64,000 bases of DNA. Origin: Oscillospiraceae bacterium (GTDB taxonomy: Bacteria; Bacillota; Clostridia; Oscillospirales; Acutalibacteraceae). The stretch lies in the NCBI GenBank assembly GCA_003514385.1, contig DOQR01000005.1, forward strand, positions 62,001 through 126,000, given 5' to 3'. Of the stretch, positions 19,184 through 54,916 are shown one piece after another (position 1 is the first letter of the stretch; the number at the start of each line of letters is the position of its first letter). The translations under genes were made by a program, and so were the position numbers. The notes below the pieces were generated by a model. It was given only the letters and a program-made list of their open reading frames with translations, made no database searches and was not told the origin of the DNA.

Positions 19184-20080
19184 ATGACAGTCAGCGCAAA
19201 CGAAAGCAGAAAAATAATGGAGCGTATCGGCTTCCCGCAGGAGGCTGTAGACACTATCGGCGATTGCACCGAAAGAGTGTCCGAAAACGCGGATTTCAAC
19301 GCCCTTGTCGATGAGTTCATCGCCCATCCCGAGAACCTCGACAGCGTGCTCGAAAGACTCAAGGCGCTCAGCGAACAGCTCGGCGAAAATGAGTATACAA
19401 TGAATATGTGCCTGCTCCTCGGCGCGTGCCCCGCGCTGCGCGAGCGCTATGCCGAGAAGGGTATCGACGAGGCGATATTCTGGAAGAGCATTGAGGATAT
19501 GCGCTGGAAGCTTCGCGAGTGCATGGACTGCGAAGAGGTCTGGGGCACTTTCGTCCCGCATTGGTACAGGGGCTTTTTTGAGATGACCCGCTTCGGACTC
19601 GGCAGATTCCAGTTCGAGGAGGCGGACTTTGACGCCGATTACTATGAGAAGTGCGGTAACACCCTCAAACGTGGTGACACGGTCATAAACTTCCATATCC
19701 CCTCGGCAGGACCGTTGACCGATGAGAAGAGACTTGATTCATATAAGCAGGCATATAAGTTCTTCGGCGGCAAGGACGGCGAGCCCATGGCGTTCGTGTG
19801 CGGCTCGTGGCTGCTCTATGAGGGGCACAGGGAGTTCCTGCCCGAAAACAGCAACATACTTCGCTTCATGGACGATTTTGATATAATCAGAAGCGCCGAC
19901 AGAGAGAAGTTCAGCGACGGCTGGCGCGTGTTCGGAAAATACAGCAACGGACCCGTTGATGACCTGCCCGAGGATACTTCTATAAGGCGCGCATTCAAGC
20001 AGAGACTTCAGCAGGGCAAGCCCACCGGCTACGGCTACGGCGTGTTCTTCTTCGACGGCGAAAAGATACTCGGCAAATAA
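19184..20080 (+). CDS. Acyltransferase-domain protein (GNAT-C/DUF5596-like)
   Basis: 298 residues, soluble and acidic. The N-terminal half is helical; the C-terminal half is mixed and includes GDTVINFHIPSAGPLT followed by AFVCGSWLLY and GYGYGVFFFDG. This resembles the widespread Clostridia family annotated as acyltransferase domain-containing protein (helical N-terminus plus GNAT-like C-terminus). No experimentally known substrate is recalled. The ATG at 19184 is used because GGAG lies 8 bases upstream; the GTG at 19175 would overlap that ribosome site. It is monocistronic with its own promoter, before the tRNA genes. Confidence 0.65.
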   Translation: MTVSANESRKIMERIGFPQEAVDTIGDCTERVSENADFNALVDEFIAHPENLDSVLERLKALSEQLGENEYTMNMCLLLGACPALRERYAEKGIDEAIFWKSIEDMRWKLRECMDCEEVWGTFVPHWYRGFFEMTRFGLGRFQFEEADFDADYYEKCGNTLKRGDTVINFHIPSAGPLTDEKRLDSYKQAYKFFGGKDGEPMAFVCGSWLLYEGHREFLPENSNILRFMDDFDIIRSADREKFSDGWRVFGKYSNGPVDDLPEDTSIRRAFKQRLQQGKPTGYGYGVFFFDGEKILGK

Positions 20081-20100
20081 CGAAAAATTTAAAAAAATTG

Positions 20101-20129
20101 TTGACAACCGGCTCGTTTTTTGATATCAT
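20101..20129 (+). promoter_or_regulatory. Promoter of the tRNA pair
   Basis: TTGACA, 17-bp spacer, TATCAT, 31 bp before the first tRNA. Confidence 0.8.
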
Positions 20130-20160
20130 AGCTGTTGTCGCACGGGAGTGCGACACATAA

Positions 20161-20237
20161 GGGCCACTAGCTCAGTTGGTTAGAGCACTCGGCTCATAAC
20201 CGAATGGTCCGGGGTTCGAGTCCCTGGTGGCCCACCA
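20161..20237 (+). tRNA. tRNA-Met (anticodon CAT)
   Basis: Cloverleaf is complete: acceptor GGGCCAC/GTGGCCC, D arm GCTC...GAGC, anticodon loop CTCATAA, T arm with TTCGAGT, and encoded CCA. The outer anticodon-stem pair is a C-A mismatch. It lacks the unpaired first acceptor base and GGG/CCC anticodon stem of an initiator, so it is elongator Met, or possibly Ile2 if the C is converted to lysidine; sequence alone does not settle this. Confidence 0.93.
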
Positions 20238-20238
20238 A

Positions 20239-20261
20239 GAAGCGCCGATTTTCGGCGCTTC
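20239..20261 (+). other. Perfect hairpin between the two tRNAs
   Basis: GAAGCGCCGA-TTT-TCGGCGCTTC, a 10-bp perfect stem without a following T run. It probably helps processing or attenuates read-through between the two tRNAs rather than terminating. Confidence 0.55.
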
Positions 20262-20269
20262 ACAAATAT

Positions 20270-20345
20270 AGGGGTATAGCTCAGTTGGTAGAGCAGCGGT
20301 CTCCAAAACCGCGTGCCGAGGGTTCAAGTCCTTCTGCCCCTGCCA
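20270..20345 (+). tRNA. tRNA-Trp (anticodon CCA)
   Basis: Acceptor AGGGGTA/TGCCCCT, D arm GCTC...GAGC, anticodon stem GCGGT/ACCGC with loop CTCCAAA, T arm GAGGG/CCTTC, discriminator G and encoded CCA. The discriminator G is the expected Trp identity base. Its last 21 bases are repeated 171 bp downstream. Confidence 0.95.
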
Positions 20346-20348
20346 AAA
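20325..20348 (+). repeat. tRNA-Trp 3'-end repeat, copy 1
   Basis: A 24-bp segment starting CAAGTCCTTCTGCCCC and running through the CCA end into AAA, identical to 20496-20519. Copy 1 is within the functional tRNA. Confidence 0.9.
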
Positions 20349-20382
20349 CAAAAAGACACCTGCGGGTGTCTTTTTGTTTTGG
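20343..20382 (+). terminator. Terminator after tRNA-Trp, 18-bp perfect stem
   Basis: CCAAAACAAAAAGACACC pairs without mismatch to its complement across the loop TGCG. The stem begins with the CCA end of the tRNA itself, so terminator and mature 3' end compete for the same bases. Confidence 0.88.
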
Positions 20383-20495
20383 CTCGGATTGAATAATTTG
20401 AACACTCGGCACGCGGAGCGTGTCGAGGGGTGCGGGTCTCCGGTGGAGACCTCTGCACGAAGTGCAGAAGCACCGACCGAGCCGGCAGGCGAGAC
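20383..20495. other. Palindrome-rich non-coding spacer
   Basis: No gene. It holds several close hairpins: CTCGGCACGC/GCGTGTCGAG, GGTCTCC/GGAGACC and CTGCACG/GTGCAG. The cluster separates the two tRNA-Trp 3'-end copies. It may be a structured repeat family or a remnant of an integrated element. Confidence 0.6.
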
Positions 20496-20519
20496 CAAGT
20501 CCTTCTGCCCCTGCCAAAA
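20496..20519 (+). repeat. tRNA-Trp 3'-end repeat, copy 2 (att-like)
   Basis: Identical over 24 bp to 20325-20348 but without the rest of the tRNA. Duplication of a tRNA 3' end is the usual footprint of site-specific integration; here the interval is only about 150 bp. Confidence 0.85.
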
Positions 20520-20555
20520 AGAAACAGTCACCATTTTGGTGACTGTTTCTTTTTT
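20516..20555 (+). terminator. Second terminator, 17-bp perfect stem
   Basis: AAAAAGAAACAGTCACC pairs with its perfect complement over ATTTT and ends in T6. It follows repeat copy 2 in the same way that the first terminator follows copy 1, but the stem sequence is different. Confidence 0.85.
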
Positions 20556-20715
20556 GTTAGACAAAACTTGTCCGAGGCACGCGCGTGCCGGGCTTCGTCG
20601 CCGAGCGCTGCCGGTGGCAGATGCAGCGAGGCGAGGATGGCGCAGCGGTCAAAATTTATTGCCGCTCCAAGGCGGAATAAATTTTGGGAATCGCTTAATT
20701 ACTCTTGAAGAAGCA
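20556..20715. other. Non-coding stretch with palindromes
   Basis: No supported gene. It contains GGCACGC/GCGTGCC, CTGCC-GGT-GGCAG and a long stem AAAATTTATTGCCGC/GGCGGAATAAATTTT (one mismatch). Base composition drops sharply to AT-rich immediately after, at the start of the orphan fragment. Confidence 0.55.
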
Positions 20716-20991
20716 ATGATTTATGGTAGAAGCGGTGATATTGAAAAGGCAAGTGAGCTGTTTAACAAATACTATCAAAATGCACTTAACGAATATAACG
20801 TGGATGTTGAAAATGGAATAGAGACTTATTTGCATAAGGGTGAGAGAATGGTCTACCGTAATACAAAAACAGGAAAAACAGAAACAATCATAGCAGACAA
20901 AGACGGGTATGTTGTTACTTATTGTGCGAATCGCTGCCATATCGATTACCTTGAAACTTTAGCAACACAACTTGGAATAGCATTGAAATAA
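20716..20991 (+). pseudogene. AT-rich orphan fragment, possibly acquired
   Basis: The open frame from ATG 20716 gives 91 residues (MIYGRSGDIEKASELFNKYY... ending QLGIALK), and the frame extends upstream through palindromes without a real start. The middle reads RMVYRNTKTGKTETIIADKDGYVVTY, a beta-rich segment like those at the ends of polymorphic or contact-dependent toxin proteins and some phage proteins. GC is clearly lower than that of its neighbours. There is no good ribosome site. I read it as the 3' remnant of an acquired gene next to the tRNA-Trp repeat; identity is not established. Confidence 0.4.
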
Positions 20992-21376
20992 TATAAAGGA
21001 GTGGCTGATTCGATTTCTGATGCTAAAGTGCAGTAAAAAGTGAGTAAATTTAAAATTGCACGGCTGAATTCAATAACGGTAACACACTGAGCTGACAAGA
21101 TGAAACGCCCTCTTGATATATTTCTAATAATAAAAATAATGCGAGGGTTCAAAAACATACAGCAAATTTGAAAGAATATCTTTTTTATAACCCATTCACA
21201 AAACTCCTGTGCGTCAGCTCGGGAGTTTTACTTTGTTATGTTAACTACACGATAGTTTCGCCACCTCCAACGCATATTGACTTTTACCCATGAATATGCT
21301 ATTGTAAATATTAGATAAAAATTTATTTAATATTTTGCGATATAATGTATATATTGCGGGAATTGGGAGGCGCGCT
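20992..21376. other. AT-rich non-coding stretch
   Basis: No gene seen. It continues the low-GC tract of the orphan fragment. One terminator-like hairpin (21200-21229) is listed separately. A TATAAT at 21341-21346 lies 31 bp before the next start codon but has no clear -35. Confidence 0.6.
21200..21229 (+). terminator. Hairpin in the AT-rich tract
   Basis: AAAACTCC pairs with GGAGTTTT over a 14-base loop. The T run is short; weak terminator. Confidence 0.5.
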
Positions 21377-22221
21377 ATGTCAAAAATCTTGTCTTTTATC
21401 ATGTCCGCCGTTATGATATTCTACTATCTTCTCGGCTTCGGCTCGATAAAAACCGACGGCGATTATACAGTCGTGCGAACCGATAAGCTCAATTCCGTGC
21501 TGTCACTCTATGCCACGGCTATGACGGCGAGAATTTCTACTGCTCCGACGCGATAACTGCGGTGAATTTCACGGGGCTCTCGAAGTTCGACAATGAAATG
21601 AACTGCCTGAAGGTCAGGACGAATGCCGTGCCGAAAGAGTTCATCGAGAAGTACGGCAGCAATCACATCGGCGGCATCGACTGCGCCAACGGCTATATAT
21701 ACGCGCCTGTCGAGGGCAAGGTTGACGGAAAGCATCTATATAATTTCATCCTGCTCTATGACTGCAAAACGCTCAAATATACCGGGATATATTATGATAT
21801 GTCGAGCGAGTATCTGACCGACGGCATCCCGTGGTGCGCGATAGACAGGGAAAACGGATATCTCTACACCTCGCAGTTCCACAATGTCGGCGAGATACTT
21901 CAATATGACCTCGAAACAATGACTTTCCTGCGCGCGATACCGCTCGAAGAGAAGCTCGACAGAATACAGGGCGGCTCGGTCTATAATGGCATGCTTTATC
22001 TCTCCTATGACGCGGCGAACAGCACTCAGGAGCAGATAATCGCGGTCGATCCGAACACCGGCTCGGTTCGCGTGGAGTTCACAAGATATTGCCCGAACTA
22101 TGACAACGAGGCGGAGGATGTCTGCGTTTATCCCATGGAGGACGGCTCGCTGTTCCATGTTGTCGATTACGATAAGCTCATCAACGCGAATGTGAGCCAC
22201 TATAAGCCCGCAGAGGGCTGA
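21377..22221 (+). pseudogene. Frameshifted membrane-anchored repeat protein
   Basis: The start is good: GGGAGG then ATG, and MSKILSFIMSAVMIFYYLLG gives a signal anchor. The first frame runs to a stop at 21556, but from about 21510 the sense continues in another frame (GYDGENFYCSDAITAVNFTG, starting near 21520) and runs on to 22221. A single-base indel near 21505-21515 explains this. The second part has repeated short units such as GGIDCANGYIYAPVEG, CAIDRENGYLYTSQF and GGSVYNGMLYLSYD, suggesting a beta-propeller-like fold. It may be a pseudogene or a sequencing error; function unknown. Confidence 0.65.
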
Positions 22222-22268
22222 ATTTCCGAAGCTATTTTTATTCAAATATAAAGGAAGAGGTGGAGTTT

Positions 22269-23864
22269 ATGGCAACATTACTTAAAAACTGCAGGATCTA
22301 CGATGGAACGGGCAGCGACGCCGTGAACGGCAGCGTTCTGTTCGAGGGAGACAGAATAATTGAAGTGGGCGATGTTGACGAGAGACGTGCCGACCGCGTT
22401 ATCGACCTCGAGGGCAGGTCGCTCGCCTCCGGCTTTATCGATCCCCATTCCCACAATGACTGGTTCGCCATAAAGACGGAACCGCTCAAATATTTTGAGC
22501 CGTTTATCCGCCAGGGCATAACCACATTCGTGACCGGAAACTGCGGCCTTTCCGCCATCGGCTTTGACGATGATACGCCCTATAAAGACAAGATAGGCGG
22601 CGGCCTTTTCTTCTTCAACGGCACTACCGGGAAATACGGCTCTATAAAAGAATTCAACGCCGCTATAGACAGAAATATGCCCTGCAATATCGCAACGCTC
22701 GTGGGTCATTGCTCGGCGCGTGCATCTGTTTCCGGATATGAAAACAGAAAGCTCTCGGCGCAGGAGGAGGAGAAAATGCTCGGCATCCTCGAAGATAACC
22801 TGCGCGACGGCGCGGCGGGCGTCTCGCTCGGTCTGATGTATGAGCCGGGGCTCTACGCCGACACAGAGGAGCTCAAAAAAGTTGTCAAGCTCTGCTGTAA
22901 GTATAATAAGCCGCTCACCGTCCATCCGAGGGCGGAGAGCAAAGTCTCAATGTCCTATGATTCGCTTTTCGGACGTTCGCATCTGCTCAGAGCCGAGGAT
23001 GAGCTCGTTGAAATATCAAAGGGTACGAACCTCAAGCTCCAGCATTCGCACGCGATATTTGTCGGCCGCCAGTCGTTCGGCGACAAGGATGAGTTCGTCG
23101 CCATTCAGAATAGTCTGCGCGAAAACGGCGTCGATGCGATGTTCGATATATATAACGAAACTCTGGGCGTGTCCGTCATAACGGTCGTGCTCCCCGTGTG
23201 GTATCAGGGAATGAGCAAAGAGGAGCGCAAAAAGCCGCTCAACAAGCTCAAACTCAGCGTGCTCATCAAGGCGACGAGCATACTTCTCGGATTCGGCTTC
23301 AAAGATATTCAGATAGCGTATATCGGTCCGGGATATGAGAAATACGAGGGCAAGACCGTCCACGAGATAGCAAAGGAGAACGGAAAATCGGATCTCGATA
23401 TGTATCTCCAGCTCTGCGAGGAGAGCGACTTCAAGGGCAGGGTCAATATGGGACCGTACAGCACTCCAGAGATAATCCGCGAGTTCGAGCATAACCCCAA
23501 CTGCCTCTACATGACTGATGCGTGGGTCGAGGATTTCGGCGTTCAGAACCCGGCTATCTATGACTGCTATCCGAAGTTCCTGCGCGATTCTCTCAGAGGT
23601 ACGGGCGACACTCTGCCCAACACCGTCCGCCGCATGACCGGCGCGACCGCCGACAGATTCATGCTCAAAGACCGCGGATATGTAAAACCCGGCTATTTCG
23701 CCGATTTCACCGTGTTCGATGAGGACGAGACGAAGAACGCAACGCCCGATCAGACGAAGTCTTTCGGCATAAAGAAAGTGTTTATCAACGGCGAGCTCGT
23801 GCTCGATAACGATGAACTCAACAAGTCCGCGCTCAAAACCACAGGCCGTGCGCTGACAGTGTGA
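22269..23864 (+). CDS. N-acyl-D-amino-acid deacylase family amidohydrolase
   Basis: 531 residues. It has the amidohydrolase_3/D-aminoacylase layout: an N-terminal beta-sandwich strand, first metal motif DPHSHNDW, the FVTGNCG strand (a usual metal-cysteine position), VTLVGH-like ATLVGHCSARA, HPRAES, LQHSHAIFVGR and a C-terminal FADFTVFD return of the small domain. Enzymes of this family release free D-amino acids or cleave N-acyl or dipeptide-like substrates in the cytoplasm. ATG 22269 has GGAAGAGG 8 bases upstream; the GTG at 22260 overlaps it. A HEAT protein gene follows after 23 bp. Confidence 0.87.
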   Translation: MATLLKNCRIYDGTGSDAVNGSVLFEGDRIIEVGDVDERRADRVIDLEGRSLASGFIDPHSHNDWFAIKTEPLKYFEPFIRQGITTFVTGNCGLSAIGFDDDTPYKDKIGGGLFFFNGTTGKYGSIKEFNAAIDRNMPCNIATLVGHCSARASVSGYENRKLSAQEEEKMLGILEDNLRDGAAGVSLGLMYEPGLYADTEELKKVVKLCCKYNKPLTVHPRAESKVSMSYDSLFGRSHLLRAEDELVEISKGTNLKLQHSHAIFVGRQSFGDKDEFVAIQNSLRENGVDAMFDIYNETLGVSVITVVLPVWYQGMSKEERKKPLNKLKLSVLIKATSILLGFGFKDIQIAYIGPGYEKYEGKTVHEIAKENGKSDLDMYLQLCEESDFKGRVNMGPYSTPEIIREFEHNPNCLYMTDAWVEDFGVQNPAIYDCYPKFLRDSLRGTGDTLPNTVRRMTGATADRFMLKDRGYVKPGYFADFTVFDEDETKNATPDQTKSFGIKKVFINGELVLDNDELNKSALKTTGRALTV

Positions 23865-23887
23865 AATATTATAAGGAACTCTAAACC

Positions 23888-24547
23888 ATGCAAACCGCAA
23901 CCGACAAAAAGATAGATTTTCTAAACGACCTTGAGGGTACAAATATCGACAGCTCCGTATATCCCGAACTTGAAAGGCTCTCGCGTGACCGTGATCCCGA
24001 GATTCGCAACAGGGTCGCGCAGGTGCTGGGCGGTGCGCGCGGCGAATATACAGATATTTTGCTGCGCCTTCTGAATGACCGGGATGAGCTCGTGAGGGTC
24101 AATGCCTGCGATTCTCTGAGCGGAACCGACAGCCGCGAGGCGATAAACGGACTTGAAAAGCATATCGCCGACAGCTCGGAACTTGTCCGCGGATATGTGT
24201 ATTCGTCACTGTACGATACCGCGTCAATGAATCCGGCGGCTTATAAGAGCGAGGTGCGCGCTCTGCTTCTGTCTGCTTGTAAAGACGAAAAATCAGATCG
24301 GGCGGGAGCTATATTGGCTTGTTCGCTGTATGCATTGGGTGAAGCCGATGCGGCGAATAAAATAAAATCATACATATCCTCCGAGGACTGTTATGTGAGA
24401 AACGCCGCCGTTCAACAGCTTCACGCCATTTGCGGCGATGCGGATATTTCTTGCTTCCGCAAAGACCTGCAGGCGCAGTATCACAAGGAGTCGGTCGGGT
24501 TTGTAAAAGATGCGCTTGAGAGTCTTTTGGAAGATATCCCGGCATAG
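23888..24547 (+). CDS. HEAT-repeat protein
   Basis: 219 residues made of about five helical HEAT-like repeats, for example SRDRDPEIRNRVAQVLGG, LNDRDELVRVNACDSLSG and SSELVRGYVYSSLYD, each about 30 residues. Such proteins act as scaffolds or adaptors; no enzyme motif is visible. It is likely co-transcribed with the D-aminoacylase-type gene upstream and followed by a clear terminator. Specific role unknown. Confidence 0.75.
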   Translation: MQTATDKKIDFLNDLEGTNIDSSVYPELERLSRDRDPEIRNRVAQVLGGARGEYTDILLRLLNDRDELVRVNACDSLSGTDSREAINGLEKHIADSSELVRGYVYSSLYDTASMNPAAYKSEVRALLLSACKDEKSDRAGAILACSLYALGEADAANKIKSYISSEDCYVRNAAVQQLHAICGDADISCFRKDLQAQYHKESVGFVKDALESLLEDIPA

Positions 24548-24564
24548 CACAGTGAAATTGCATC

Positions 24565-24600
24565 AAAGAGCGTTCTCCGAAAAGAGGACGCTCTTTCGTC
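24565..24600 (+). terminator. Terminator after the HEAT gene
   Basis: AAAGAGCGTTCTC pairs with GAGGACGCTCTTT over CGAAAA, followed by a CGTCTTT tail. Confidence 0.8.
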
Positions 24601-24608
24601 TTTCCGTC

Positions 24609-24638
24609 TTGCTTCTTAGCCGTGCAATCTGATAGAAT
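24609..24638 (+). promoter_or_regulatory. Promoter of the broken glycosidase gene
   Basis: TTGCTT, 18-bp spacer, TAGAAT, 34 bp before the ATG at 24673. Confidence 0.5.
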
Positions 24639-24672
24639 AGACTCATTAGCAGTGAATTTTTGGAGGACAACT

Positions 24673-25085
24673 ATGAAAATATTTAACGCCGCCGATTTCG
24701 GCATAGTCCCGAATGAGGATATTTCGGAGAAGCTCGCAGAGTTTATCTCGGCATTGAAAGCTGAGGACGGGGAGAAGACCGCTGTGTTCGACAGCGGCAC
24801 TTATCATATCACAGTCGACCCGAAGCTTTTTATGCCGGCTGTTACGCCGTATCTCGCGGCGTGTCGGATCTTGTTTTTGACGGCGGAGATTCGATTTTTG
24901 TTATCGACGGCAAGGTGACTAACATAGCCGTTGAAGATTGCCGGAATATAACTCTGCGCAATCTCGAGATACGCCACGCTCACCCGGATATGCATGAGTT
25001 TTTGGTCGTTAGAAAAAGTGCATTCAGCGTGGATTTCAAAATCGACAGCGACAGCAGCTTTTCGGTCTATGCACTATTATGCTAA
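24673..25085 (+). pseudogene. Broken beta-helix glycosidase (GH110-like), patched and truncated
   Basis: A normal start (TGGAGGACA then ATG) leads into MKIFNAADFGIVPNEDISEK and AVFDSGTYHI, the usual opening of large right-handed beta-helix proteins related to GH110 alpha-galactosidases. After GTYHI the next bases are the 62-bp segment also found in the ABC permease at 28180, and the frame then breaks. From about 24862 another frame resumes the family (GVSDLVFDGGDSIFVIDGK, ITLRNLEIRHAHPDMHEF). About 40 residues of the family appear to be missing between. The reading stops at 25085, three bases before the next promoter, so most of the gene (normally several hundred residues) is lost. Confidence 0.75.
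24800..24861 (+). repeat. 62-bp repeat shared with the ABC permease gene, copy A
   Basis: Matches 28180-28241 at 61 of 62 positions (only 24831 T versus 28211 C differs). Here it lies at the junction where the glycosidase frame breaks. Same orientation as copy B, offset 3,380 bp. Confidence 0.95.
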
Positions 25086-25087
25086 AT

Positions 25088-25116
25088 TTGACAAATGTAT
25101 TTTCTCGGTGTATAAT
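25088..25116 (+). promoter_or_regulatory. Promoter of the lipoprotein gene at 25220
   Basis: TTGACA, 17-bp spacer, TATAAT: near-perfect consensus, starting three bases after the end of the broken glycosidase. The leader is about 97 bp long. Confidence 0.85.
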
Positions 25117-25219
25117 ATAAAATGTCAAGACTTCCCAAAAGCTATTTTCGCCGGGATTTTTCGCCCGAATTTTATCCTGTTAAAAGCCGCTTTCGGCGGC
25201 GGGAAAGGGGATATTTTTT

Positions 25220-26275
25220 GTGAAAAAATCTGCTTTGATTTTTCTTGCTTTTTCTATATTGCTGCTTGCGGCATGCCAAAAAACGCCCGAGTCTGTCATG
25301 GACGGAAATGTCCTGCGCGCAAAAAGCTCGAACGATTTGCTCGTCGAGTCCCTCGTGAGCGCACCCGCCGATAACGACAATCAGGGCGGTACGACGCCCG
25401 TTCTCTCAAAAACCGAGCATCTCAAGCGCGACATTTCATCCGGAGGCATAACCGTGCATATCGACGCCGATATAAAAGTGCCGAAGATAACCGGAGATAT
25501 ACGGACATATTCCGCGCAGTACCGCTTCTTCGACCTGCTCGAGCTTGAAGACCTGTTCTTCTCCGGCGACGATCCGATGTTCAATCCCGGCTCGGAGAAA
25601 ACGGCGGAGGACGATCCGTCTGCCGGGCTGCTCCCGGGCGGATTTTATTTCGGCGTGTCCGAAGTTCTGAGCGCGTCAAACCATCCGACTGCTTTGAAAC
25701 CCGGCTGGGCAAAGGGCTGCAATATCTCTCCCGACGATGCGCGCCGCCTGTCGGATAAGCTTCTCGGCCGCCTCGGAATGACCGATTTTGAGCTCGTCTC
25801 TTCGCAGGTCGTTGAACCTCTGACCGAGCGAGGCAACCGTGCCAAACGCGGCAGATATGAATATAAATATGTCCAGGTTGCCGACGGAATACCGCTTTCG
25901 AGCGGCGAGCCGGACAGCACAGGATGCACCGTCGCAATAGACGACAGGGGTGTTGTCGAAGCAAGGCTCACAAGGCTTGAGCTTGGCGAGTCGAAAATCG
26001 TAAACAGCAAGGTTATGACGCTCGACGGCGTTCTCGCAGTTTTGCAGAAGAAGCTTGCCGCCGCAGGACTTGTCAAAGACTCGATCGTAAAAGAGATAAG
26101 CTTTGAATATATGTCGGTCGAAGATCCCGAAACATATAATTCGACCGTGTTCCCGTGCTGGCATTTTTGTATAGCTACTATCGCAACGCTGGAGCAATAC
26201 GGCGAATATGAAAATGATATTATAATCAATGCCGTAACCGGTGAATTTTACGCCGTTACGAATAGATACGAATAA
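25220..26275 (+). CDS. Lipoprotein, DUF6034-like
   Basis: 351 residues. GTG start with AAAGGGG upstream. A lipoprotein signal peptide ends in the lipobox LLAAC (Cys about 19). The mature part begins QKTPES and is otherwise charged and beta-rich, with CTVAIDDRGVVEARLTRLEL and a C-terminal IIINAVTGEFYAV that resembles PepSY/DUF6034-type folds in Clostridia lipoproteins. It should be anchored on the outer face of the membrane. The gene has a strong own promoter and probably starts the transcript that includes the M23-like lipoprotein (19 bp later) and the ABC transporter. Function unknown. Confidence 0.6.
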   Translation: MKKSALIFLAFSILLLAACQKTPESVMDGNVLRAKSSNDLLVESLVSAPADNDNQGGTTPVLSKTEHLKRDISSGGITVHIDADIKVPKITGDIRTYSAQYRFFDLLELEDLFFSGDDPMFNPGSEKTAEDDPSAGLLPGGFYFGVSEVLSASNHPTALKPGWAKGCNISPDDARRLSDKLLGRLGMTDFELVSSQVVEPLTERGNRAKRGRYEYKYVQVADGIPLSSGEPDSTGCTVAIDDRGVVEARLTRLELGESKIVNSKVMTLDGVLAVLQKKLAAAGLVKDSIVKEISFEYMSVEDPETYNSTVFPCWHFCIATIATLEQYGEYENDIIINAVTGEFYAVTNRYE

Positions 26276-26294
26276 CTAAAAGGAGGAAAACAAA

Positions 26295-26948
26295 ATGTTG
26301 AAACGCACAAAAGGATTCGTATCGCTCGCTGCCGCAATCGCACTCATGCTGGGACTCTGTTCCTGCAGCGGCAAACCCGAAACAGACCCGAGCACAACTG
26401 CCGACCCGACCGGAATAGGGGCGCAGGCAGAGACCGGGGAGAACAACACGGCGAAGGATATTGCTCCCGAAAGCGGCGCACCGGAAACCGCTGCAGAGGA
26501 AGCAAACACTGCCAAAGAAGCAGGCACCGCCGCGCAGACGGAAAAGGCAACAAAGAAAACAGATGCTTCAAATGCAAATGTCAGCGCCGCCGGATTCATT
26601 TGGCCCGTGCCCGGCTATACACAGCTTTCCTCTCCGTACAGCACTCAGTATAAGCGCATAAGCATCAAGGCTGATTTCGGCGCAAAGGTTGTTGCCTGCG
26701 CCACCGGAAAAATTACGAAGATATATAACAAAGATGATGAAAGCAAAACTCCGTGTGCCGTGCTGACCTGCGCCAACGGCTATGTCATTGAATACAGCGC
26801 GGCAAATTTCTCCGTTAAGGAGGGCGATGTTGTCGCCCGCGGCGACAGTATCGGCTTCGTCGGCAGATACGGAACCGGTCCTCACCTGAATATTTCAGCC
26901 ACGAAGGACGGCGCAAGTATTGATCCCGCAACGATCATAAAGCCCTGA
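26295..26948 (+). CDS. Lipoprotein with degenerate M23 (LytM) peptidase domain
   Basis: 217 residues. The lipobox is LGLCSC; a Thr/Ala/Glu-rich linker (about 25-95) follows, then an M23-like fold (FIWPVPGYTQLSSPY to GPHLNISATKDG). Active M23 enzymes have a zinc-binding HxxxD and a final HxH; here the first site reads KRISIKADFG and the last GPHLNIS, so at least two of the metal/catalytic histidines are replaced. It is therefore likely a non-catalytic LytM factor that binds or activates, such as an EnvC-like regulator. It lies between another lipoprotein and an ABC permease. AAAAGGAGG precedes the ATG. Confidence 0.78.
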   Translation: MLKRTKGFVSLAAAIALMLGLCSCSGKPETDPSTTADPTGIGAQAETGENNTAKDIAPESGAPETAAEEANTAKEAGTAAQTEKATKKTDASNANVSAAGFIWPVPGYTQLSSPYSTQYKRISIKADFGAKVVACATGKITKIYNKDDESKTPCAVLTCANGYVIEYSAANFSVKEGDVVARGDSIGFVGRYGTGPHLNISATKDGASIDPATIIKP

Positions 26949-26961
26949 GCGGGGTGATCCT

Positions 26962-27729
26962 ATGCTCAGAAAGGATGTAAAAAGTCAGCTTTTTTCAACC
27001 GGGATGTTGATATCCCTGCTGCTCGGACTTGTTCTGCTTGTCGAGCCGCAGTATCAGTATTTTCTGTATTTTGCGCGGTGGGATAACAAGGCAGATTATA
27101 TCAATTTCTTCTTCTCGTCCCTCGCGCTCGGCGGATATCTTATCTTTACGCCGATAATAACCGTTATGCCCGGCGTGTTCCGTTTCTGTGATGAGTATAA
27201 CAGCGGATACCTGCGCTTTATGCTTGTGCGCTCGAAGAGCCGCAGAAAATATATTTTCTCAAGACTTTTTTCAAACGCTGTCTGCGGCGGCGCGGCAAAC
27301 GCTCTGCCGCTTGCGGTGTTTGCGCTCATAATGCTCATTTTCTGCGACCCGTATGTCCCGAACGGACATTCGAAGACTCCGCTTGACGGAAGCATATTGC
27401 AGCCGTTTGAAAACGTCGCGGGCGGGCTCGGCCTGGTCGGAGTGATAATCCTGCTCGCGTTCCTCTTCGGCGTCGTGTGGGGAGTTATCGGTACGGCTCT
27501 GTCCGCCGCGGTGCCCAACAGATATGTGGCTTTCTGCGGTCCGTTCGTGCTGTTCTTCCTGATGCACCTCGTCGCGAGCGCGCTGCAAAAAGAAAAGTTC
27601 AGCCCGACCAATACTATCCTGCCCGATATTCTGCCGTCGTTCGGCTTTCTGTTTTTGTATCAGGCGGTGCTTCTGGTGCTCGGCTGCGCGGTGTTCATTT
27701 TCTTCGCGCGAAGGAGGCTGCTGCAATGA
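26962..27729 (+). CDS. ABC-2 type permease, subunit 1
   Basis: 255 residues with about six transmembrane helices (for example 14-31, 50-72, 103-126, 150-180 and the C-terminal FLYQAVLLVLGCAVFIFFA). FCDEYNSGYLRFMLVRSKSRRKY is the typical cytoplasmic amphipathic segment that couples ABC-2 permeases to the ATPase. The stop overlaps the next start (ATGA). Three permease genes in a row share one ATPase, so the transporter is probably a heteromeric exporter; the substrate is unknown. Confidence 0.8.
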   Translation: MLRKDVKSQLFSTGMLISLLLGLVLLVEPQYQYFLYFARWDNKADYINFFFSSLALGGYLIFTPIITVMPGVFRFCDEYNSGYLRFMLVRSKSRRKYIFSRLFSNAVCGGAANALPLAVFALIMLIFCDPYVPNGHSKTPLDGSILQPFENVAGGLGLVGVIILLAFLFGVVWGVIGTALSAAVPNRYVAFCGPFVLFFLMHLVASALQKEKFSPTNTILPDILPSFGFLFLYQAVLLVLGCAVFIFFARRRLLQ

Positions 27730-28559
27730 AACAGTGTCTCTCTGTGATGCGCTGGCAGTTCGGCACATGGCTCGGCAGCGCGCGGACTATTACGGCTTTT
27801 CTCGTCTGCGCCGCCGCTTCGCTGCTCGATTCCGTGAATCTTATGCAGTTCGCCCGGGCGAGCGGAGATCCGCTTAACATATTTGAGCCGTTTATATATA
27901 ACAGCTCAACGCTCCATATCGCGACATTGATGTTCCTCGGGCTTATGCTCCTGTTCGCCGACGCGCCTTTTACCGAGCAGAGCGCGATGTATTCGCTCGT
28001 GCGCTGTTCGCGGGTGCAGTGGATAGTCGGAAAGCTCATGTATATCCTGCTCTCCTGCGCCGTGTATTATATATTTTCGCTCGCGGTGACCGTGCTATTC
28101 TTTTCGCCCAACGCCTTTGCCGGTAATGTGTGGAGCGCGCCGTTTTATGAGCTCGTCATGCGCGATGCGGCGACTTCGTCTTATCATATCACAGTCGACC
28201 CGAAGCTTTTCATGCCGGCTGTTACGCCGTATCTCGCGGCGGCCTATGCCTTGGCGCTGAATCTCGGCTACGGCTTTTTCTGCGGCTCGCTTCTGTTTTT
28301 GATAAATCTAAGCGGCAGCCGCGTGCTGGGATTCGCCGTGCTCTCGGCTCAGCATATCATTTCATATCTGATACGGTTTAAGTACCTCCCGTTTTTTATC
28401 TCCGTATTTTCGAATCACGGCTTCTCAGAGGATGCCGGTCTGCCGTCGGTCGGCTTTTCGTGCGCGTATTTCTGCATGCTCGCGGCGATTATCGTTGCGT
28501 GTATTCTTCGCGCCGTTCGGCATGTCGATCTCAAAATAACAGTGGGGACTCGAATATGA
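27726..28559 (+). CDS. ABC permease, subunit 2
   Basis: 277 residues, hydrophobic, with about six helices (for instance LHIATLMFLGLMLLFADAPF and IVGKLMYILLSCAVYYIFSL). ERS-like coupling region: DAPFTEQSAMYSLVRCSR. The ATG at 27726 overlaps the previous stop; its own stop overlaps the next ATG by the same arrangement. Residues about 152-172 are encoded by the 62-bp repeat shared with the broken glycosidase; here the frame is intact through it, so this gene is the likely source. Confidence 0.8.
   Translation: MKQCLSVMRWQFGTWLGSARTITAFLVCAAASLLDSVNLMQFARASGDPLNIFEPFIYNSSTLHIATLMFLGLMLLFADAPFTEQSAMYSLVRCSRVQWIVGKLMYILLSCAVYYIFSLAVTVLFFSPNAFAGNVWSAPFYELVMRDAATSSYHITVDPKLFMPAVTPYLAAAYALALNLGYGFFCGSLLFLINLSGSRVLGFAVLSAQHIISYLIRFKYLPFFISVFSNHGFSEDAGLPSVGFSCAYFCMLAAIIVACILRAVRHVDLKITVGTRI
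28180..28241 (+). repeat. 62-bp repeat, copy B, inside the permease gene
   Basis: Same segment as 24800-24861 with one difference. It encodes SYHITVDPKLFMPAVTPYLAA in frame, leading into a transmembrane helix. Confidence 0.95.
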
Positions 28560-29290
28560 AGATAACTTTTTTTGCGGGATTGCGGCATCGGCTTTTCAAT
28601 ATGCTGCCGTATCTCGCTGTGTCTCTGCTCATATGGACGGTCTGCGTGCTCTCGTCTTTCGGCGGCGAGCGGGAAACATTTTTCTTCGTTTTCACTGAAG
28701 CCGTCGGCGGCGTTGAACACAGCGGACAGTTTGATCTCTTCGGCTTCTTCCGCTATTTCGGAACATTTTTTGCGGGACTCTTTCTCGGTATGGCGGGCTC
28801 GGTCCTCGATTCCGAGGCGATGCCGTATTTCGTCCTGCCGCGCTCGAAGAGCTTTTTCAAATGGTGGATAAAAACCGTTTCGCCCGCTCTTCTCTGGTGC
28901 GTGCTCTATTGCCTTATCGGCATAGCTGTCTGCGCAGCGGCGGCGGAAAAAGTCGGAACGCTTTCCGCCTTTGAGCTTATGCGCATGGCGGCATATCCGC
29001 TCGCGCTCGGTGCGTCAATGTGTGCGCTGTGCTTTCTGCGTTTTCTTCTCGGGCAGAAGCCTGCGGCGGCGATTGTCATCGCGGTTGTCGGCACAACGGG
29101 GCTAATATGCGGGAAGCTGAAAAGCTTCGGCTTCGCCATGCTCGGCGCATACGGCATGGCAAAACAGCTGACCGATGCCAAAACGGCTGCGGCGGTACTC
29201 TTTGCAGACGCGGCGGTGATAATCCTTGTCTTTTTCTGCTCCGGCGCAGTGAAGAGAAGGGCTTTGAAAGGAGGACATTATTTTGACTGA
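28556..29290 (+). CDS. ABC permease, subunit 3
   Basis: 244 residues with about six membrane helices (N-terminal LPYLAVSLLIWTVCVLSSF; C-terminal AAAVLFADAAVIILVFFCSG). VLPRSKSFFKWWIKT is the probable coupling segment, parallel to the LVRSKSRRKY of subunit 1. The start overlaps subunit 2, and the stop overlaps the ATPase gene by 8 bases. The basic tail VKRRALKGG supports a cytoplasmic C-terminus. Confidence 0.78.
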   Translation: MKITFFAGLRHRLFNMLPYLAVSLLIWTVCVLSSFGGERETFFFVFTEAVGGVEHSGQFDLFGFFRYFGTFFAGLFLGMAGSVLDSEAMPYFVLPRSKSFFKWWIKTVSPALLWCVLYCLIGIAVCAAAAEKVGTLSAFELMRMAAYPLALGASMCALCFLRFLLGQKPAAAIVIAVVGTTGLICGKLKSFGFAMLGAYGMAKQLTDAKTAAAVLFADAAVIILVFFCSGAVKRRALKGGHYFD

Positions 29291-29930
29291 TGTTATAGTT
29301 ATAGATAAGCTGACAAAAAGCTTCAAAGGGAAAACGGTTCTCGAAGATGTCAATATGCGGCTGCAAGAGGGCAGGATATATGGCATCGTCGGCGACAACG
29401 GCAGCGGCAAGACCGTACTTTTAAAGCTTATTTGCGGATTCATGAAGCCCGGCAGCGGAACGGTCACCGTCAACGGCAAGGTGATAGGCAAAGACGCTGA
29501 CTTCCCGGAGAACACGGGAATTATAATCGAAGCGCCCGGATTCCTGCCCAATTACAGCGGCATGAAAAATCTTGAATACCTCGCCTCGATACGCGGCAAA
29601 ATCGGCAAAGAGCAGATAGAGGCCGCCATGAAAACGGTCGGTCTTGACCCGTCGTCAAAGCTGCGGGTCGACAAATATTCGCTCGGCATGAAACAGCGCC
29701 TCGGCATAGCGCAGGCGATAATGGAGGATCAGCAATTATTGATTCTCGACGAGCCGATGAACGCGCTCGACAAGGACGCAGTCGAGGAGATGCGAAAGCT
29801 CTTCCTGAGCTTTAAAGCGAGCGGAAAAACTATGCTCATAGTCTCGCATAACGAGGGCGATATCTCGACCCTCTGCGACGAGGTTTATGAATTTGACGGC
29901 GCGCGGATAAAGCGGCGCGGAAATGTCTGA
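29283..29930 (+). CDS. ABC transporter ATP-binding protein
   Basis: 215 residues, a complete nucleotide-binding domain: Walker A GDNGSGKT (about 38-45), Q-loop region, signature YSLGMKQRLGIAQA, Walker B QLLILDEPMNALD and the switch histidine in LIVSHNE. It starts at TTG 29283, with AAAGGAGG 8 bases upstream, inside the end of permease 3. The close overlap with three permeases shows one exporter complex. The signature with MKQR rather than GGQ places it with ABC-2 exporters (drug, bacteriocin or lipid type). Confidence 0.93.
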   Translation: MTDVIVIDKLTKSFKGKTVLEDVNMRLQEGRIYGIVGDNGSGKTVLLKLICGFMKPGSGTVTVNGKVIGKDADFPENTGIIIEAPGFLPNYSGMKNLEYLASIRGKIGKEQIEAAMKTVGLDPSSKLRVDKYSLGMKQRLGIAQAIMEDQQLLILDEPMNALDKDAVEEMRKLFLSFKASGKTMLIVSHNEGDISTLCDEVYEFDGARIKRRGNV

Positions 29931-29955
29931 AATATACTCACGGAGCTGAAAAATA

Positions 29956-30444
29956 ATGAAATCAAACAGAAAAATTATCGTGTCCGCCTTAGCCCTTCTT
30001 CTTGCGGCAATCTCGCTTGCCGGGTGCGCTAAAGTGGCGCGCGAGCCGGAAACGACGACTGCACCCGAAACTACGACCGAGGAGCAAACGACGGAGCCGA
30101 CCACCGAGCCGACAACGCAGGCGGAAACAACAAAGGCGACCTCCGCACGCGGCGCGGAAACGACCCGCCGGGCTTCCGGTTCTTCAAATACCGCGTCAAA
30201 GACTACGGAATTTCAGGTCGATTTTGACGCGATAAGAATGCTCGGGGTTCCGAAATTTCGCGCGTATGCCGACCTGGGTGATGGCTTTTCATCAACAGGC
30301 AAGACCGCGACCGTGAACGGAGTCAAGTGCAAGACCTATAAAATAACTTTTGAAGGCAGCGACGATGTCCTGCTCGCATACGATGAGCAGAACAAGGTGC
30401 TGTATGAGTACGACAACGAAACAAAAGATTGGATAGAATTATAA
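29956..30444 (+). CDS. Lipoprotein with Thr-rich linker
   Basis: 162 residues. Signal peptide with lipobox SLAGC (Cys about 24), then a long Thr/Glu/Pro-rich linker (about 30-80, TTEPTTEPTTQAETT), and a small C-terminal beta domain (KTYKITFEGSDDVLLAYDE). The linker would hold the domain away from the membrane across the wall. It is the last gene of the ABC-lipoprotein run, 25 bp after the ATPase, and a terminator follows. Likely an accessory of the transporter or an envelope sensor; no known motif. Confidence 0.7.
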   Translation: MKSNRKIIVSALALLLAAISLAGCAKVAREPETTTAPETTTEEQTTEPTTEPTTQAETTKATSARGAETTRRASGSSNTASKTTEFQVDFDAIRMLGVPKFRAYADLGDGFSSTGKTATVNGVKCKTYKITFEGSDDVLLAYDEQNKVLYEYDNETKDWIEL

Positions 30445-30448
30445 AAAA

Positions 30449-30493
30449 ACAGGCGCTTTACGGTTTTGCCGCAGAACGCCTGTTCTTTTTTTG
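30449..30493. terminator. Bidirectional terminator
   Basis: AACAGGCG and CGCCTGTT close a 36-base hairpin, with A7 on the left and T7 on the right. It serves the lipoprotein gene (plus) and the HAD gene (minus). Confidence 0.85.
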
Positions 30494-30496
30494 TGT

Positions 30497-31306
30497 TTAT
30501 ATGTGCAGTGCTTTGAGTATCGCGTCGGTGCCCTCGAAGTGCGGGATTATCATATCGGCGCCCGCCGACATGAGCCTTGCCCGTTTCTTTTCGTCTATTC
30601 CGTCGCCGGTCTTTTCGTTTGTCGCCACGCCGACTGCGTATCCGCCGAGTTTTGCCGTGAGCTCTATCTCAACAAATCCGTCGCCGAAAGTGACAAGCTC
30701 CTCCGGATCTAGCTTCTGCTCTTCAATCATGTTCTTTATAACCGCCTCTTTTGAGCAGTCGAGCAGAGCGTCCTTCGCGCCGTGTATTCCGCCGTCGAAG
30801 AGATCTTTGACTCCGATTAAGGACGCCTCATATATGACATCCTCTTCGTCCGTTCCGCTCGCGAGGAAGCATCTTATCCCGGCGTTCCTCAGCGCTTTTA
30901 TGAACTCGACTGACCCTCTGACCGCGAGATCGGCGGGGGAGAGACAGCCGCTTTCGAGTCCCTTTTTTCTGTCGGCTATCCGCGTTTCGAGTCTGCGCAG
31001 ATATTCTTTTTTGTATTCGCCCGGGTCAACGTGCTCTCCGCCGCGGCGAACAACTGCCTCGTTGAGCGCGATGCATTGGAATATCGTCTGCTTGCCGGTC
31101 AGTCGGTCGACGAATTCCGTGACCTCTTCGCATATTCCGCCTTTATTTTCATTTGTGCCGAGAGCTTCGATGACCTCGCAGAAATACGGAATCATCACTT
31201 TCTGCCAGCCCTCGCGTATAAGGCTTATCGTGCCGTCAAAATCGAACAGCGCGCATTTGAAGCCCCTGCCGCTGTATTCTTTTATCGTTTCGATTGAAAA
31301 ACTCAT
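30497..31306 (-). CDS. HAD superfamily phosphatase (PGP-like)
   Basis: 269 residues. Motif I FDFDGTIS (about 21-27), motif II CFLASGTDEE, motif III lysine within the region GAKDALLDC, and motif IV TFGDGFVEIE. A helical cap lies between motifs I and II, as in phosphoglycolate phosphatase-type enzymes. It is the third gene of a minus-strand operon with a PfkB-type kinase (24 bp gap) and a DHS-like protein. A phosphatase paired with an HldE-like kinase recalls the GmhB step of heptose activation, but the sequence does not establish the substrate. Confidence 0.85.
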   Translation of the reverse strand: MSFSIETIKEYSGRGFKCALFDFDGTISLIREGWQKVMIPYFCEVIEALGTNENKGGICEEVTEFVDRLTGKQTIFQCIALNEAVVRRGGEHVDPGEYKKEYLRRLETRIADRKKGLESGCLSPADLAVRGSVEFIKALRNAGIRCFLASGTDEEDVIYEASLIGVKDLFDGGIHGAKDALLDCSKEAVIKNMIEEQKLDPEELVTFGDGFVEIELTAKLGGYAVGVATNEKTGDGIDEKKRARLMSAGADMIIPHFEGTDAILKALHI

Positions 31307-53376: not shown

Positions 53377-53416
53377 AAAAATCCGCAGCGAAGAAAAATT
53401 TGCTGCGGATTTTTTG
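53377..53416 (+). terminator. Terminator of glmS
   Basis: AAAAATCCGCAGC and GCTGCGGATTTTT, a 13-bp perfect stem with a 12-base loop. Confidence 0.92.
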
Positions 53417-53428
53417 CCTTATAAGTTT

Positions 53429-53442
53429 ACTTCGCGCGAAGT
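53429..53442. promoter_or_regulatory. Operator-like palindrome upstream of GH29
   Basis: ACTTCGCGCGAAGT is a perfect 14-bp palindrome with a central CG, as in LacI-family operators. A second inverted repeat, ATACAT-C-ATGTAT, follows at 53458-53470, 24 bp before the start codon. No regulator gene is adjacent. Confidence 0.55.
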
Positions 53443-53494
53443 TTATGTTATCTTTATATACATCATGTATCATATATCCGAAAGGAAAGCAGAT

Positions 53495-54916
53495 ATGAAG
53501 AAGAATGACGATTACATAAAGCGCGCGGCGGCGGTCGTGCCGAGCGAGCGCCAGCTCAAGTGGCATGAGCTCGAGTTCTACGCCTTTATTCACTTCGGCA
53601 TGAACACATTCACAAACTCCGAATGGGGCAACGGCAACGACGACCCGGTGCTCTTCAATCCCGAGAAGCTCAACGCGAATCAGTGGGCGGCGGCAGTCCG
53701 TGCGGCGGGCATGAAAGCGATTATCCTGACCTGCAAGCACCATGACGGCTTCTGCCTGTGGCCGAGCGAGTATACGGATTACAGCGTCAAAAAGAGCAAA
53801 TGGAAAGACGGACAGGGCGATGTCGTGCGCGAATGTGCCGAAGCGTGCAAAAAATTCGGTCTCAAGTTCGGCGTCTATCTTTCACCGTGGGACAGGCACG
53901 ATCCCCGCTACGGCGAGGGCGAGGCGTATAATAAATATTTCAAGAATCAGCTGCGCGAGCTGCTGACTAACTACGGCGATATATTCTGCGTCTGGTTTGA
54001 CGGCGCGTGCGGTGAGGGCAAGAACGGACGCAAGCAGGAGTATGACTGGCAGGGCTACTACGAGCTTATCCGCGAGTGTCAGCCCGAGGCGGTCATTTCC
54101 GTCACGGGTCCAGATGTCCGCTGGTGCGGAAACGAGGCGGGAGTCTGCCGCAAGAGCGAGTGGAATGTCGTGCCGTATTATTACAGCAATCAGGAGCTGA
54201 TAGCTGCCGCGTCTCAGCAGACCGCGGAGAAGCCGCCGAAGAGGATAAGCGCTACCACGCTCGACCTCGGCAGCCGCAAGGCTATAAAAAATGTGTCGAA
54301 GCTCATCTGGTATCCCGCAGAGGTCGATGTCTCGATAAGAAAAGGCTGGTTCTATCATCTCAACGAGGACTATGAGGTAAAGCCCCTGTCGAAGCTTATG
54401 GAGATTTATTATAACTCTGTCGGCGCGAATGCGAGCTTGCTGCTCAATATCCCGCCGAACAAGGACGGTCTGTTTGCCCAGCGCGATGTCGAGACCCTGC
54501 TCGCCATGGGCGCGCAGCTTCAGATAGACTTCAACGAGGATCTGGCGGACGATTCGATAATGACCGATTCCTGCCACCTCGATGAGGAGCACCGCGGTCA
54601 GATGGCTCTGACACACACCACCGACGAGTATTGGCACTCGGGCTTCGATCCCGACCATGCTACCCTGACGCTCGACCTCGGCGACGATTACGATATCGAC
54701 AAGATTGTGCTCTCCGAGCATATCGCGACAGGTCAGCAGATAGAAAAATTCTCGCTCTACGGTCAGATAAACGGCAAGTGGAAAAAGATATTTGCCGGCA
54801 CCGTTATCGGCTCGAAGCGCATCTGCCGCTTTGCAGAAACGAGAATGCAGTATATAAAGCTCGTTATCGAAGAGACCCGCTGCTTTGCGACTATCGCAAG
54901 ATTCGAGGCATATTAA
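53495..54916 (+). CDS. GH29 alpha-L-fucosidase
   Basis: 473 residues. The family motifs are FGMNTFTNSEWGNGNDD, KHHDGFCLWPS and the nucleophile Asp169 in IFCVWFDGACGEG. The last about 110 residues form a beta-sandwich like an F5/8-type C (discoidin) module (LTLDLGDDYDIDKIVL, MQYIKLVIEETRCF). GH29 enzymes retain and release alpha-1,3/1,4/1,6-fucose, complementary to the inverting GH95 enzyme at 5.3-7.6 kb. No signal peptide, so cytoplasmic. ATG 53495 has GAAAGGAAAG upstream; it is monocistronic. Confidence 0.92.
   Translation: MKKNDDYIKRAAAVVPSERQLKWHELEFYAFIHFGMNTFTNSEWGNGNDDPVLFNPEKLNANQWAAAVRAAGMKAIILTCKHHDGFCLWPSEYTDYSVKKSKWKDGQGDVVRECAEACKKFGLKFGVYLSPWDRHDPRYGEGEAYNKYFKNQLRELLTNYGDIFCVWFDGACGEGKNGRKQEYDWQGYYELIRECQPEAVISVTGPDVRWCGNEAGVCRKSEWNVVPYYYSNQELIAAASQQTAEKPPKRISATTLDLGSRKAIKNVSKLIWYPAEVDVSIRKGWFYHLNEDYEVKPLSKLMEIYYNSVGANASLLLNIPPNKDGLFAQRDVETLLAMGAQLQIDFNEDLADDSIMTDSCHLDEEHRGQMALTHTTDEYWHSGFDPDHATLTLDLGDDYDIDKIVLSEHIATGQQIEKFSLYGQINGKWKKIFAGTVIGSKRICRFAETRMQYIKLVIEETRCFATIARFEAY

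What the first reader, a model, noticed from the sequence alone, without database searches (positions are those of the whole stretch)
24800..24861. 62-bp segment of an ABC permease gene found inside a broken glycosidase gene
24800-24861 and 28180-28241 are identical except for one base. In the permease the segment is in frame and leads into a membrane helix. In the glycosidase it comes right after GTYHI, the frame is lost at its right border, and the family resumes in another frame (GVSDLVFDGG). About 40 family residues seem to be replaced. Both genes share the 11-bp CTTATCATATC at the left end, so ectopic recombination through microhomology, with the permease as donor, is the simplest account. 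An assembly error is the main rival.
Basis: partly seen in the sequence, partly recalled or inferred. Interest (0 to 1): 0.75.

Follow-up and report, generated by a model that had tools for sequence, protein, structure and literature searches.

The report
Transporter-gene snippet inside a dead sugar-cutting gene
In an uncultured, probably gut-type bacterium a 62-base piece of a nearby membrane-transporter gene was copied into the remains of a sugar-cutting enzyme gene, a real but ordinary kind of DNA copying accident that seems to set up further deletions in related strains.

Summary
The repeat is real: 24800-24861 matches 28180-28241 at 61 of 62 bases, and it is the only repeat joining two genes clearly above chance in the window. 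The permease copy is native: five more distant permeases align through it without a gap. The copy in the glycosidase is foreign: the best-sampled relatives of the same relic (P0049, P0066) have 36 ordinary GH110 residues there. So the permease is donor, and a GH110 relic already truncated at its 3' end is recipient.

An assembly error is unlikely: 9 of 83 related proteins carry the segment between the GH110 halves, on separate contigs up to 263 kb, with point differences of their own. Five of 83 are GH110-permease fusions, as deletion between the copies would give; 0 of 83 are the full reciprocal fusion.

Mechanism: microhomology template switching out and back, or tandem duplication then deletion. 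Other alleles share the right joint but have different left partners, leaning towards an older right joint. A clear natural case of a known process; modest interest.

The parts
24673..24810 (+). GH110-like N-terminal remnant (ATG at 24673, ...DSGTYHI)
   Evidence: ORF; family by P0049 to GH110 alpha-galactosidases 8yk3 (E 9.5e-5) and 7jw4 (E 0.0045) and by alignment to 539-553 aa open frames in three other genomes
24800..24861 (+). copied permease segment (recipient copy); left joint inside CTTATCATATC, right joint at GCGGCG
   Evidence: 61/62 identical to 28180-28241; absent from unpatched relatives P0049, P0066, P0043
24861..25085 (+). GH110-like remnant after the patch, in another frame, truncated (...SFSVYALLC)
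   Evidence: ORF; same truncated end in unpatched P0049 and P0066; longer relatives continue past this point (P0068; L097, L111, L112)
27726..28559 (+). ABC-exporter permease-like membrane protein, 277 aa (donor gene)
   Evidence: 22 homologues; no Pfam or NCBIfam hit of its own; function inferred from neighbours
28180..28241 (+). donor copy, native to the permease
   Evidence: no gap across the segment in P0003 (87%), P0008 and P0009 (59%), P0017 (39%), P0018 (41%)
25220..26275 (+). lipoprotein-like gene, between the two copies
   Evidence: weak DUF6034 match, E 7.3e-7, 28.9 bits vs cut-off 27; lipoprotein attachment site only at E 0.083
26295..26948 (+). M23 peptidase-like protein, between the two copies
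   Evidence: Peptidase_M23 E 1e-12
26962..27729 (+). ABC-2 type permease, between the two copies
   Evidence: ABC2_membrane_2 E 1.8e-6, 27.9 bits vs cut-off 27.2
29283..29930 (+). ABC transporter ATPase of the same cluster
   Evidence: ABC_tran E 4.7e-31; best NCBIfam TIGR03740 170 bits, below its cut-off 309.75

Best explanation
A short stretch of the permease gene, 3.38 kb downstream in the same orientation, was copied into an already decaying GH110 glycosidase relic through two joints at short shared sequences. The left joint lies within CTTATCATATC and the right one at GCGGCG; about 108-115 nt of native sequence were replaced by 45-51 nt. The most likely machinery is replication template switching (slippage or microhomology-mediated repair), with the strand leaving the relic for the permease and returning. 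Shown: donor, recipient, extent, and presence in many separate contigs. Inferred: the exact joints in the pre-patch allele, the polymerase-switch mechanism and whether both joints arose in one episode. My split is about 0.45 for one episode, 0.35 for a tandem-duplication joint (permease to GH110) first and a deletion later, and the rest for other routes. Once present, the direct repeat probably serves as substrate for 3.4-kb deletions that fuse the relic to the permease. No function is proposed for the patch.
For: 61/62 identity. Donor native: 5 more distant permeases align through the segment. Recipient native state known: P0049 (623 member sequences) and P0066 (612) have GH110 residues there, aligned without a gap to GH110-like open frames from three other genomes and matching PDB 8yk3. 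Patch alleles in 9 of 83 proteins (P0023, 24, 26, 27, 28, 30, 31, 40, 42), with longest contigs of 262,894 bp (P0028) and 41,681 bp (P0027), from sources printed as ena and lgn. Five of 83 are GH110N-permeaseC fusions (P0014, 15, 22, 25, 61; 199 member sequences, 195 of them P0015), 0 of 83 the full reciprocal. A direct duplication with a deletion between the repeats, read as two direct template switches, is described in E. coli (PMC3161906, passages).
Against: No DNA of a related strain was available, so joints in relatives are inferred from proteins, partly by joint back-translation of two reading frames. Those gave 0 conflicts for the right joint and for the left joint taken singly, but 4 conflicts when P0062's frame was added to the former. 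P0083 joins a non-permease start to a permease stretch reaching further left than the 62-mer (GGFVLSYHSR, as in the permease allele P0011) and then to the same right joint. P0078/P0080/P0082 join another stretch to the last ~16 nt of the segment and the same right joint. A simple one-episode patch does not predict these. P0031 has a different right joint. No fold feature at the joints stands out (z-scores 0.26, 0.77, -0.89, -0.82).
Confidence: 0.83

Rival explanations
1. Two ordinary steps: a tandem duplication of the 3.4-kb block with its joint at GCGGCG (permease end joined to GH110 C part), then a deletion at the shared sequence inside CTTATCATATC in the first copy, leaving only 62 bp of permease.
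For: The same right joint occurs with at least two other left partners (P0083; P0078/80/82), and P0083 holds more permease sequence on the left than the window allele (compare permease allele P0011). Other internal deletions occur in the same relic (P0036, P0063, P0065).
Against: The intermediate (permease N part running into GH110 C part) is in 0 of 83 proteins, though such duplications are expected to be unstable. P0083 (3 member sequences) could instead come from recombination inside the 62-bp identity or be a chimera.
Confidence: 0.35
2. [quoted passage not shown] This overlaps with the one-episode version of the best explanation; only the source of the strand differs.
For: Product looks the same: a short heterologous segment of intragenomic origin. 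SPDIR is named, citing Harms et al. 2016, in PMC7192050 (passage); the primary paper is not held.
Against: Predicts nothing tested here that separates it from template switching; competence genes of this organism were not examined.
Confidence: 0.2
3. A relic-permease deletion fusion arose first (left joint), and its DNA then recombined into an unpatched relic with homology on the left and microhomology at GCGGCG on the right (homology-facilitated illegitimate recombination).
For: Fusion alleles exist and one is well sampled (P0015, 195 member sequences).
Against: Does not by itself explain P0083 or P0078/80/82, which share the right joint.
Confidence: 0.1
4. Assembly error across a short shared sequence.
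For: No genome is held for the window, so it may be metagenome DNA, and adapter-like or chimera-like rows do occur in the protein collection (P0010, P0019).
Against: Same structure on separate contigs with their own differences (P0023, 24, 26, 27, 28, 30); one mismatch between the copies; no full reciprocal chimera in 83 proteins.
Confidence: 0.03
5. The segment is native in both genes (shared motif or homology).
For: None found.
Against: Unpatched GH110 relics and longer GH110 frames have unrelated residues there; the likeness is at DNA level.
Confidence: 0.01

Closest known systems
[quoted passage not shown] Harms et al. 2016)
   Same: Short heterologous segment of intragenomic origin replaces a native stretch (title seen in reference lists, name in a passage of PMC7192050; microhomology at the ends and the Acinetobacter baylyi details are recalled)
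   Different: Seen here in natural sequences, with a donor only 3.4 kb away in direct orientation; single-strand origin and competence untested
Microhomology-mediated template switching / MMBIR in starving E. coli (PMC3161906)
   Same: Microhomology at junctions; complex events, among them a direct duplication with a deletion between the repeats, read as two direct switches (passages)
   Different: In the passages seen, the events span up to tens of kilobases or more, mostly around a selected lac region on an F' plasmid; here the net product is a 62-bp patch in a dead gene
Deletion between short direct repeats
   Same: GH110N-permeaseC fusions fit a 3,380-bp deletion between the two 62-bp copies
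   Different: Here the repeat was itself made by an earlier copying event

Membership tests
Short-patch double illegitimate recombination | short non-homologous segment substituted, donor elsewhere in the genome | tested here: met
Short-patch double illegitimate recombination | microhomology at both boundaries | tested here: inconclusive
   right joint GCGGCG shared (back-translation, 0 conflicts); left joint 8 of 9 bases shared in the Tyr allele, up to 11 in a His allele but not fixed at DNA level
Short-patch double illegitimate recombination | single event with a single-stranded donor | tested here: inconclusive
   alleles with the same right joint and other left partners (P0083, P0078/80/82); donor strandedness cannot be tested here
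Template switching / MMBIR | nearby template copied and donor kept | tested here: met
   donor permease ORF intact 3.38 kb away
Template switching / MMBIR | dependence on replication and repair functions | not testable with these tools
   needs experiments
Glycoside hydrolase family 110 | sequence relation to GH110 enzymes | tested here: met
   8yk3 E 9.5e-5 and 7jw4 E 0.0045 with P0049; Pfam only a sub-threshold pectate-lyase-like match, E 0.038
Glycoside hydrolase family 110 | full-length catalytic domain, i.e. a working enzyme | tested here: not met
   relic ends at 25085, about 137 codons after 24673, with the frame lost inside; three relatives have 539-553 aa open frames. It is a relic of the family, not a member enzyme
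ABC-2 type export permease (donor) | match to a curated permease model | tested here: not met
   no Pfam or NCBIfam hit; role inferred from the adjacent ABC2_membrane_2 permease and ABC_tran ATPase

The most novel reading that the evidence does not exclude
The two copies keep exchanging sequence, so this locus is a recurrent patch-and-delete hot spot in which the exporter block can be lost and remade. In support, two polymorphisms appear on both sides: Ala/Val in permeases (P0002, P0012 Val) and in patches (P0023, P0028 Val), and the C/T at 28211/24831, with T implied by reading frame in permease P0011 and C implied in P0040, P0042 and P0083 (frames compared by hand). Recurrent transitions would explain these as well.
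Probability: 0.12. Interest if true: 0.5.

Novelty: new member of a known kind. Interest (0 to 1): 0.3.

Why it matters
It is a clean natural example, outside laboratory models, of a short ectopic patch from a known donor with a known pre-event state, and of how such a patch may then seed larger deletions. The many alleles of this one relic in public data would let the order of such joints be worked out once their DNA is read. It does not reveal a new system.

Tried and rejected
Finding the same species. Genome-contig scans: with permease P0003 (41 stretches, none a relative) and with the neighbouring deacylase (best 80 kept of 113, best 74%). Local tblastn of those 80 loci at E<=0.01 found the ATPase family (27 hits) but no relic and no donor permease. 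The genome search with DnaG: 14 of 14, 32 of 34, 66 of 398 at E<=1e-200 (best 64%), 1 of 394 at E<=1e-225, the centre itself. Permease P0002: 22 of 300 genomes, best row 32%. Relic P0066: 1 of 2, 10 of 18, 6 of 396 at E<=1e-20, best row 37%. None is the species; the larger searches were draws from larger groups, so it may still be held.

Mobile or viral origin: no relatives of P0049 or P0002 in viral contigs; no match for a 121-base stretch around the patch in plasmids or around the donor in phages (the other two combinations were not run); only two tRNAs in Rfam for 20000-31000. Hairpin-driven switching: folds not clearly better than shuffles.

I first read P0040 and P0011 as evidence of a second donor allele; by hand comparison of reading frames both fit the known segment, so that was dropped. 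A first joint back-translation of P0082 with P0078 failed (15 conflicts); with P0080 it gave 0.

Rows in the 83 that support nothing: P0010 (contains what I recall as a translated adapter) and P0019 (probable chimera).

Full report
Observation. The two stretches 24800-24861 and 28180-28241 are identical at 61 of 62 positions, differing at 24831/28211. Self-BLAST of the whole window lists 11 pairs; this one has E 1.8e-25. Four more lie below E 0.09 (three self-paired inverted repeats and a tRNA 3' end copy), and the remaining six have E of 0.097 or more. The segment is not a chance match.

Which copy is native. The permease ORF (27726-28559, 277 aa) had 22 homologues in the large protein collection. 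Aligned, P0003 (87% identical), P0008 and P0009 (59%), P0017 (39%) and P0018 (41%) run through the segment without a gap. The segment is therefore native to the permease. The permease itself has no Pfam or NCBIfam hit; its role is inferred from the adjacent ABC2_membrane_2 permease and ABC ATPase.

The recipient. Two searches with the relic (44 proteins of 46 candidates; 50 of 78) returned its alleles. The best-sampled, P0049 (623 member sequences) and P0066 (612), have 36 residues between GTYxI and GGVSDL where the window has the permease segment, and they end in the same truncated SFSVYALLC. P0049 matches GH110 alpha-galactosidases of known structure (8yk3 E 9.5e-5 over residues 32-144; 7jw4 E 0.0045 over 69-142). 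The same list of 10 also holds ribosomal protein S2 at E 0.017, which I take as chance. Open frames of 539-553 aa from three other genomes align across the 36 residues without a gap relative to P0066 and continue far past the relic's end (three further loci in that call were misread and are not used). So the recipient is a GH110 relic, already truncated, and the patch came on top.

Prevalence and the assembly rival. together gave 83 distinct proteins, P0001-P0083. By simple pattern rules: 9 carry the segment between two GH110 parts; 18 have both GH110 parts without it (three of these, P0036, P0063 and P0065, have lost most of the interval by deletion); 5 are GH110N-permeaseC fusions; 16 have only the GH110 start, with native or other tails; 9 have only the GH110 C part, one of them (P0083) with the segment; 19 are permeases or permease pieces; 7 fit no rule (GH110-like, more distant). 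None has both a permease N part and a GH110 C part. Listed member sequences add up to 102, 1,458 and 199 for the first three groups. Patched alleles have longest contigs of 262,894, 41,681, 33,514 and 32,962 bp (P0028, P0027, P0026, P0030) and differ among themselves (MPAV, MSVV, IADP, YYI). An error of one assembly does not give this. The lack of full reciprocal fusions argues that the fusions are true deletions between the repeats rather than chimeras, which should come in both forms; a reciprocal of about 186 aa would have been within the length range. This is an argument from a protein list, not from reads.

Joints. Two alleles read in different frames fix the unpatched DNA around the right joint with 0 conflicts; adding a third allele, P0062, gave 4 conflicts without changing the letters at the joint. 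Relic and permease share GCGGCG there. On the left, two frames fix the Tyr allele, which matches the permease at 8 of 9 bases of TATCATATC (0 conflicts); an allele with His (P0066) could share up to the full CTTATCATATC, but that is not fixed at DNA level. P0024 and P0061 keep Tyr next to the permease segment, which places their left joint near its end. About 115 nt were replaced by 51, net -64, hence the lost frame. Some patched alleles (P0031, P0042, P0040) read on in frame, but all three end in the same truncation, so no working enzyme results.

Mechanism. One episode of template switching out and back explains the window allele. Three facts complicate it. P0083 has an unrelated start (methyltransferase-like by eye, not searched beyond the window), then a permease stretch reaching further left than the 62-mer (GGFVLSYHSR, as in the frameshifted permease allele P0011), then the same right joint. 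P0078, P0080 and P0082 have another stretch, then only the last ~16 nt of the segment, then the same right joint. P0020 and P0021 join that same stretch to the permease C part. By eye it resembles the GH29-like tail of P0039 and P0046, but its own query had no significant match in the window. The simplest reading of P0083 is that the right joint (permease to GH110) is older than the window's left joint, as in a tandem duplication followed by deletions with different left ends. P0083 rests on one cluster of 3 member sequences, however, and could also come from recombination inside the 62-bp identity. I put one episode at about 0.45 and two steps at about 0.35.

Known parallels. In starving E. 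coli, complex events with junction microhomology, including a direct duplication with a deletion between the repeats, are interpreted as template switches; insertion of nearby sequence at junctions is stated there for human events, with similar complexity reported for E. coli (PMC3161906, passages only). SPDIR is named among illegitimate recombination routes in natural transformation (PMC7192050, passage; the primary Harms 2016 paper is not held, and its details are recalled). The literature searches were made; none named this organism, so I claim nothing about prior reports of this locus.

Organism. No genome is held for the window. The nearest DnaG found is 64% identical, and one GH110 relative is labelled 'Acutalibacteraceae bacterium' (P0068). 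The window is probably from an uncultured member of that part of the Clostridia; this is an inference, and so is a gut origin.

Verdict. Observation confirmed, interpretation supported and sharpened; a new natural example of a known process.

Noticed in passing
20325-20348 and 20496-20519: The 3' end of tRNA-Trp (20270-20345) has an exact 24-nt copy 171 nt downstream, followed by its own terminator-like hairpin; possibly an old attachment site or a decayed tRNA copy.
   Followed up: partly
P0039, P0046, P0053; window 53414-54916: Other alleles of the relic run from the GH110 N part into a tail (GTTVGYKK...AGIRVY) that weakly resembles the C-terminal end of the window's GH29 fucosidase (28% over 46 residues, E 0.001), suggesting further rearrangements at this locus.
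   Followed up: partly
P0005, P0013, P0022: Permease and fusion alleles that leave the permease after VLGFAVLS (or VLSFAVLS) into an unrelated tail (GYENNNLRAGKERQPL...); no significant match in the window.
   Followed up: partly
P0004, P0006, P0007, P0011, P0012: Permease alleles with internal deletions or frameshifts: the donor gene seems to be decaying in some strains too.
   Followed up: no
P0010: Contains SYTHLDVYKRQ, which I recall as a translated sequencing adapter; a contaminated assembly in the protein collection.
   Followed up: no
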